Below the pieces are notes generated by a model that was not told the DNA's origin, made no database searches, and worked only from the letters and a program-made list of their open reading frames with translations. This document shows positions 91 to 297 of a stretch of 35,089 bases of DNA, piece by piece (within the stretch, counting starts at the first letter, position 1; every line of letters begins with the position of its first letter). The stretch spans positions 1 through 35,089 of the forward strand of contig JAIEQB010000066.1 in assembly GCA_019748065.1 (NCBI GenBank), written 5' to 3'. Both the position numbers and the translations under genes were made by a program. The DNA comes from Alphaproteobacteria bacterium (GTDB lineage: Bacteria; Pseudomonadota; Alphaproteobacteria; UBA9655).

Positions 91-120
91 TTGACTTTAT
101 GAACCTTTATTCAATAGGAT
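91..120 (+). promoter_or_regulatory. Putative sigma70-type promoter of the SBP-rapZ-PTS operon
   Basis: A TTGACT -35 element (91-96) is followed after 18 nt by TAGGAT (115-120). The start would fall near 127, giving a short leader before the Shine-Dalgarno at 144-150. This is judged by eye. Nothing else is recognised in bases 1-90. Confidence 0.5.
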
Positions 121-156
121 AATTTCTTAAGTCATCGGACAAGAAAGGAGATCGTC

Positions 157-297
157 ATGAATAATTATTTATATAACTCGTATTGCGCATCTCCTTATTG
201 GCGTTGGTGGGATTCTTATACTTTGAGATTTTTCCATCAATTTTTGCCAAAACGAGAGAGCCATGACAATTTTAAAAAACATTCAAAATACACTTAA
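157..297 (+). CDS. Aromatic-rich 46-aa leader ORF (putative leader peptide)
   Basis: This short ORF has the best ribosome-binding site of the region: AAAGGAG at 144-150, six bases before the ATG. The 46-residue product has six Tyr (4, 6, 9, 14, 21, 45), three Trp (15, 17, 18) and four Phe. Most of these lie in residues 4-29, around the run YWRWWDSY. It overlaps the start of the downstream substrate-binding protein gene by 35 nt in another frame, so translation of the two must interact. No signal peptide or domain is recognised. Because the next genes belong to a family named for putative Trp/Tyr uptake, I infer a regulatory leader peptide whose ribosome could stall at aromatic codons. I do not see a convincing terminator/antiterminator pair, so any control would more likely act on translation. 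It could instead be an ordinary small protein. Confidence 0.5.
   Translation: MNNYLYNSYCASPYWRWWDSYTLRFFHQFLPKRESHDNFKKHSKYT

What the first reader, a model, noticed from the sequence alone, without database searches (positions are those of the whole stretch)
91..297. Tyr/Trp-rich leader ORF ahead of putative Trp/Tyr-type ABC binding proteins
The strongest ribosome site of the region drives a 46-codon ORF with six Tyr, three Trp and four Phe codons. It overlaps the weakly initiated start of a binding-protein gene whose family is commonly labelled 'tryptophan/tyrosine'. A ribosome stalled at the YWRWW codons (196-210) would sit upstream of the next start (263) and leave it exposed, whereas fast translation would run over it. 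This would be a simple sensor of aromatic amino-acid supply in an organism probably dependent on its host. I know of no described leader of this kind for this transporter family.
Basis: partly seen in the sequence, partly recalled or inferred. Interest (0 to 1): 0.68.

Follow-up and report, generated by a model that had tools for sequence, protein, structure and literature searches.

The report
Tryptophan-coded leader ahead of tryptophan-binding protein gene
A short open reading frame with conserved tryptophan codons lies just before the gene of a probable tryptophan-uptake protein in bacteria that cannot make tryptophan, and sister genes carry matching leaders (for example histidine codons), so these microbes probably sense each amino acid by how fast a ribosome reads its codons.

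Summary
The 46-codon ORF (157-297) with AAGGAG and a conserved sigma-70-type promoter (91-120) lies ahead of SBP1 (263-1228) in all 15 genomes of the genus and in a second genus. The genomic neighbourhood of SBP1 differs, yet the leader stays. Trp-X-Trp is invariant; most Tyr and Phe codons drift. The 16/16 hit rate compares with 0/97 other genes and 2/4800 shuffles. Trp, His and Phe biosynthesis markers are absent from the genus. SBP1 carries the Gln that confers Trp selectivity on S. pneumoniae SP1069. Paralogous binding-protein genes carry leaders of other codon types: His runs ahead of HisX-like proteins, RFRSG and RLRLTS ahead of two more clades. In other families, operons with a Trp-type plus a His-type protein carry dual leaders (SWRWRHHHSC, IARWRHG). 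The RNA folds into a three-way junction that pairs the leader SD and the SBP1 start (z -3.1 in the window), but covariation does not prove it. Most likely this is ribosome-mediated, mainly translational, attenuation of Trp uptake: a known principle in a transporter family and lineage for which I found no such description.

The parts
1..77 (.). repeat end shared with more than 20 other contig ends of the genome (insertion-sequence-like); not part of the leader, ends before the promoter
91..120 (+). conserved sigma-70-type promoter TTGACT-18-TAGGAT
   Evidence: TTGAC in the 15 genus upstreams read
131..138 (+). 5' strand of helix P1 (GTCAT-C-GG), can pair with CCATGAC over the SBP1 start
144..152 (+). 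leader Shine-Dalgarno region AAGGAGAT, 5' strand of helix P2
157..297 (+). leader ORF, 46 codons; core S-P-[YC]-W-R-W
189..196 (+). ATCTCCTT, 3' strand of P2 (codons Ser-Pro with nearly invariant synonymous sites TCT CCT), sequesters the leader SD
199..210 (+). regulatory codons Trp15-Arg16-Trp17-Trp18, also the 5' strand of hairpin P3
233..250 (+). 3' strand of P3 (CCATCAATTTTTGCCAA)
253..269 (+). SBP1 ribosome site and start (GAGAGAGCCATGACA), inside the leader ORF; AUG paired in P1
263..1228 (+). SBP1, TrpX-like periplasmic binding protein (PF04392), Gln at the SP1069 Gln-284 place, no Trp residue after residue 25
1229..2170 (+). SBP2, second PF04392 binding protein, Trp at the same pocket place; co-located with SBP1 in the genus

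Best explanation
The ORF is a tryptophan-coded leader peptide gene that controls the synthesis of a tryptophan-binding protein (SBP1, with SBP2) by ribosome-mediated, mainly translational, attenuation. When charged tRNA-Trp is scarce, the ribosome stalls at Trp15/Trp17, occupies the strands of P2 and P3 and keeps the three-way junction open, so that the SBP1 start about 64 nt downstream is free. When Trp is plentiful, ribosomes run through the overlap and over the SBP1 start, and the RNA refolds with both the leader SD and the SBP1 start paired. Shown: conserved ORF, codons and promoter position, auxotrophy markers, pocket residue, match between leader codons and protein clade. Inferred: stalling, exposure of the start, direction of the response, translation rather than transcription as the step controlled.
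For: Leader kept in 15/15 genus genomes and G016, in changing genomic contexts. Trp-X-Trp invariant among drifting codons; the Arg codon varies CGT/CGA and is Asn in G016. 16/16 versus 0/97 genes and 2/4800 shuffles. TrpA (PF00290), HisB (PF00475) and PDT (PF00800) absent from all 15 genomes, controls positive. Family binds aromatic amino acids; Gln-284 of SP1069 gives Trp binding (PMC6816091); SBP1 has Gln there in all orthologues. Leader codons follow protein clade: W leaders on the W clade, H leaders on the clade that elsewhere follows a TrpR/YerC (HisR)-type gene; tandem W+H operons have dual leaders. His-leader proteins are His-poor, 0.88% versus 1.7-2.1%. Fold z -3.1 in the window, mean -1.9 over 16; leader SD paired in most. 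No intrinsic terminator on the + strand before SBP1. Overlap of leader and SBP start kept in all four leader types of the genus.
Against: No covariation signal. G001 and G016 fold poorly. Opening the SBP1 start costs only about 1.8 kcal/mol less with a stalled ribosome, 0.5 with the milder model. Outside the family, leaders of the W clade were found in only 4 of 11 by a strict rule, one of them (G160) doubtful, against 2 of 36 others (Fisher p 0.02); some W-clade genes (G160, G235, G087) have none that is clear, and two deep-branching proteins (G021:C106, G015:C2:140155) have W leaders but no Gln. Zero Trp in SBP1 is shared by the C-type paralogues, so it is not specific. No expression data.
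Confidence: 0.7

Rival explanations
1. Transcription attenuation: the same Trp codons are sensed, but the P3 hairpin followed by UUUUU acts as a terminator that a stalled ribosome prevents.
For: P3 has GUUGGUGG...CCAUCAA followed by five U in the window; G342/G166 have a hairpin followed by six T after the leader stop.
Against: The U-tract is short and not kept in relatives, the scan finds no + strand terminator, and in the genus the leader ORF runs over the hairpin, so rapid translation would also prevent termination.
Confidence: 0.15
2. Structured RNA element (riboswitch-like, ligand unknown) in which the ORF is only a by-product: Ser-Pro and Trp-Arg-Trp codons are kept for pairing.
For: TCT CCT and TGG CGT are kept at synonymous sites; strong fold.
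Against: Trp codons recur in other families in unrelated sequence with CGA, CGT or AGA arginine codons; leader codons match the protein clade, including dual leaders; no Rfam match in the window except a tRNA.
Confidence: 0.08
3. Constitutive translational coupling: the leader merely loads ribosomes near a weak start, without sensing.
For: Weak SBP1 SD, overlap of 22-35 nt in nearly all leaders of the genus.
Against: Does not explain invariant Trp, runs of His in the His-type leaders, or dual leaders.
Confidence: 0.07

Closest known systems
trpL/hisL-type leader peptides of trp and his biosynthetic operons (ribosome-mediated attenuation)
   Same: short SD-led ORF with clustered cognate codons just upstream of a gene for the same amino acid; competing RNA structure
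   Different: controls uptake protein genes in auxotrophs, leader overlaps the structural gene start, no clear terminator in the genus
T-box control of trpXYZ in Streptococcus suis (PMC9382623) and of hisXYZ in Firmicutes (PMC9413887)
   Same: same kind of transporter (TrpX-type binding protein), responds to tRNA charging, specifier UGG
   Different: here a translated leader ORF, no Rfam match to a T-box in the window, other phylum
HisR (YerC, TrpR family) control of hisXYZ (PMC9413887)
   Same: a TrpR/YerC-type gene stands before the GP[DN]Q binding-protein clade in other small-genome alphaproteobacteria
   Different: the genus of the window uses His-coded leaders on that clade instead
erm/cat-type translational attenuation (from general knowledge)
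   Same: stalled ribosome frees a sequestered downstream start
   Different: signal is amino acid supply, not a drug; leader ORF covers the start

Membership tests
ribosome-mediated amino-acid attenuator (trpL type) | short ORF with RBS and clustered cognate codons upstream of a gene of the same amino acid | tested here: met
   translation itself not shown
ribosome-mediated amino-acid attenuator (trpL type) | terminator/antiterminator pair before the first structural gene | tested here: not met
   no + strand terminator in 1-1300
ribosome-mediated amino-acid attenuator (trpL type) | response to starvation lost on change of the codons | not testable with these tools
   needs a reporter
translational attenuator | downstream start sequestered in an RNA structure that a stalled ribosome opens | tested here: inconclusive
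   start paired in about 10 of 16 folds, leader SD paired in most; small opening gain; no covariation
T-box riboswitch | Rfam T-box match upstream of the gene | tested here: not met
TrpX tryptophan-binding protein | PF04392 domain | tested here: met
   E 1.3e-81
TrpX tryptophan-binding protein | NCBIfam NF041285 equivalog cut-off (390 bits) | tested here: not met
   278.7 bits; so TrpX-like, not TrpX by that model
TrpX tryptophan-binding protein | Gln at SP1069 position 284 | tested here: met

The most novel reading that the evidence does not exclude
A modular, lineage-wide system in host-dependent alphaproteobacteria: duplicated TrpX/HisX-type binding proteins each carry a leader whose codons name the ligand (Trp, His, two others, and Trp+His for tandem operons), and which controls translation by overlapping the start. 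If so, the leader reads out the substrate of each binding protein.
Probability: 0.5. Interest if true: 0.75.

Novelty: new variant of a known kind. Interest (0 to 1): 0.62.

Why it matters
It shows how bacteria that lost amino-acid synthesis may keep the attenuation principle by moving it from biosynthesis to uptake, giving a codon-based counterpart to the T-box control of the same transporter family in Firmicutes. The leader codons also predict ligands of binding proteins in lineages known almost only from metagenomes, which can be tested by binding assays.

Tried and rejected
T-box or other known RNA family: no Rfam match but a tRNA-Leu. Covariation proof of the fold: not significant. Consensus folds for the other leader types: none convincing. 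Trp absence in SBP1 as evidence: rejected, shared by other clades. Weak profile hits of the leader elsewhere in the genus: short and weak; the best of them (G011:C6) lies inside an unrelated gene. Repeat at 1-77 as part of the leader: rejected, it ends before the promoter. Plasmid search with 1-160: no match. Literature search found no description of such leaders for this family, within an open-access library only.

Full report
Observation. The ORF at 157-297 is there as described: 46 codons, six Tyr, three Trp, four Phe, SD AAGGAG, YWRWW at 196-210, overlapping the start of a 321-residue binding-protein gene at 263. The window is contig C63 of a 1.93 Mb genome in 83 contigs; its first 77 bases are a repeat found at more than 20 other contig ends, so the window begins in an insertion-sequence-like end that stops before the promoter.

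Conservation. SBP1 orthologues occur in the 15 genus genomes and in G016 of another genus. All 16 have the leader, with the stop normally at +35 of the SBP1 start. G008 ends right after Trp-Arg-Trp; G016 reads VVWNWW. A profile of the leader finds it once per genus genome with E from 1e-27 to 6e-7; further hits are short and weak. The pair SBP1-SBP2 sits between a two-component system and rapZ in G010, next to unrelated genes in G011, G007 and G016, yet the leader stays. Codon by codon, TGG-CGN-TGG is invariant in 15/15, Ser-Pro before it nearly so with fixed codons TCT CCT, while most other codons drift. A TTGAC -35 element is kept ahead of the leader in the genus, and the window has TTGACT-18-TAGGAT at 91-120.

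Chance. With a fixed rule (SD, ATG, at most 60 codons, two Trp within four codons) 16/16 orthologues, 0/97 other genes and 2/4800 shuffles qualify; for four His in six codons, 15/15 His-type paralogues, 0/97 genes and 0/4900 shuffles. These sequences are related, so the counts are not independent events.

Physiology. TrpA, HisB and prephenate dehydratase families are absent from all 15 genus genomes while the named controls are found. SBP1 is PF04392, TrpX-like but under the NCBIfam TrpX cut-off. Solved relatives bind Phe (3LKV), Tyr (CD0873) and Trp (3LFT, SP1069); Gln-284 of SP1069 explains Trp binding (PMC6816091). SBP1 has Gln at that place in every orthologue.

A set of leaders. Paralogous binding-protein genes in the genus carry leaders of other kinds, also overlapping the start: MHHHHH or MHRHHxHH on one clade, xxFRFRSG on the clade that is followed by a permease and an ATPase, LLRLRLTS on another. 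A survey of the class gives WRW-like leaders in further small-genome families (G028, G035, G263, G249) and a His leader in G374. In a tree of 125 proteins, W-leader proteins fall in one clade (support 84, weak), His-leader proteins in another (support 97) together with proteins that in other lineages follow a TrpR/YerC-type gene, the type named HisR, which controls hisXYZ elsewhere (PMC9413887). Operons with a W-clade and an H-clade protein in tandem have leaders that hold both signals: SWRWRHHHSC (G035, G263) and IARWRHG (G342, G166). Large-genome relatives with Tyr at the pocket place show no such leader. Limits: outside the family the strict rule gives 4/11 against 2/36, one of the four being doubtful, and two deep-branching proteins have W leaders without the Gln.

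RNA. The leader folds into a three-way junction: P1 pairs GTCAT near the 5' end with ATGAC of the SBP1 start, P2 pairs the leader SD with TCTCCTT, P3 pairs the Trp codons with CCATCAA...GCCAA (z -3.15, mean z -1.9 over 16). 87% of cells pair, against 37-61% when slid, but the covariation measures do not exceed shuffles. A ribosome at Trp15 lowers the cost of opening the SBP1 site in 13/16 when RNA upstream is excluded, by 1.8 kcal/mol on average, hardly when it is not. In G035 and G263 the SBP start is also paired. The fold is therefore plausible, not shown.

Verdict. A Trp-coded leader that most likely controls translation of a Trp-binding protein by ribosome stalling. The principle is known; its use on this transporter family, in uptake rather than synthesis, with a set of codon-specific leaders matched to ligand clades, was not found described.

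Noticed in passing
window 1-77: Repeat end shared at 89-100% identity with more than 20 contig ends of the same genome (insertion-sequence-like); the upstream of SBP1 in G013 looks similar by eye.
   Followed up: partly
L081 (G000:C52) upstream of 2106 (-): Leader MHHHHHYKNF... overlapping a HisX-like binding-protein gene; kept in the genus and, as MRHHHHHHHIHKGDNA, in G016.
   Followed up: yes
L080 (G000:C68) upstream of 2478 (+): Type B leader MINLLRLRLTS...; a hairpin followed by a T run stands between promoter and leader in most relatives; its proteins are Arg-poor (1.2% versus about 2%). Ligand unknown.
   Followed up: partly
L079 (G000:C37) upstream of 3726 (-): Type C leader MAYFRFRSG... 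ahead of a complete binding protein-permease-ATPase operon; its codons CGA TTT AGA AGC hardly vary.
   Followed up: partly
L128, L164, L152, L165: Dual Trp+His leaders ahead of tandem Trp-type and His-type binding-protein genes.
   Followed up: yes
L087 12570-12875, L130 1104-1385: TrpR/YerC-type (HisR-like) gene directly before the GP[DN]Q binding-protein clade in many small-genome alphaproteobacteria.
   Followed up: partly
L105 (G003:C18): Type B binding-protein gene is broken: 222 residues, with a further fragment about 13 kb away.
   Followed up: no
window 1229-2170: SBP2 has Trp at the pocket place where SBP1 has Gln; its ligand is unclear.
   Followed up: no
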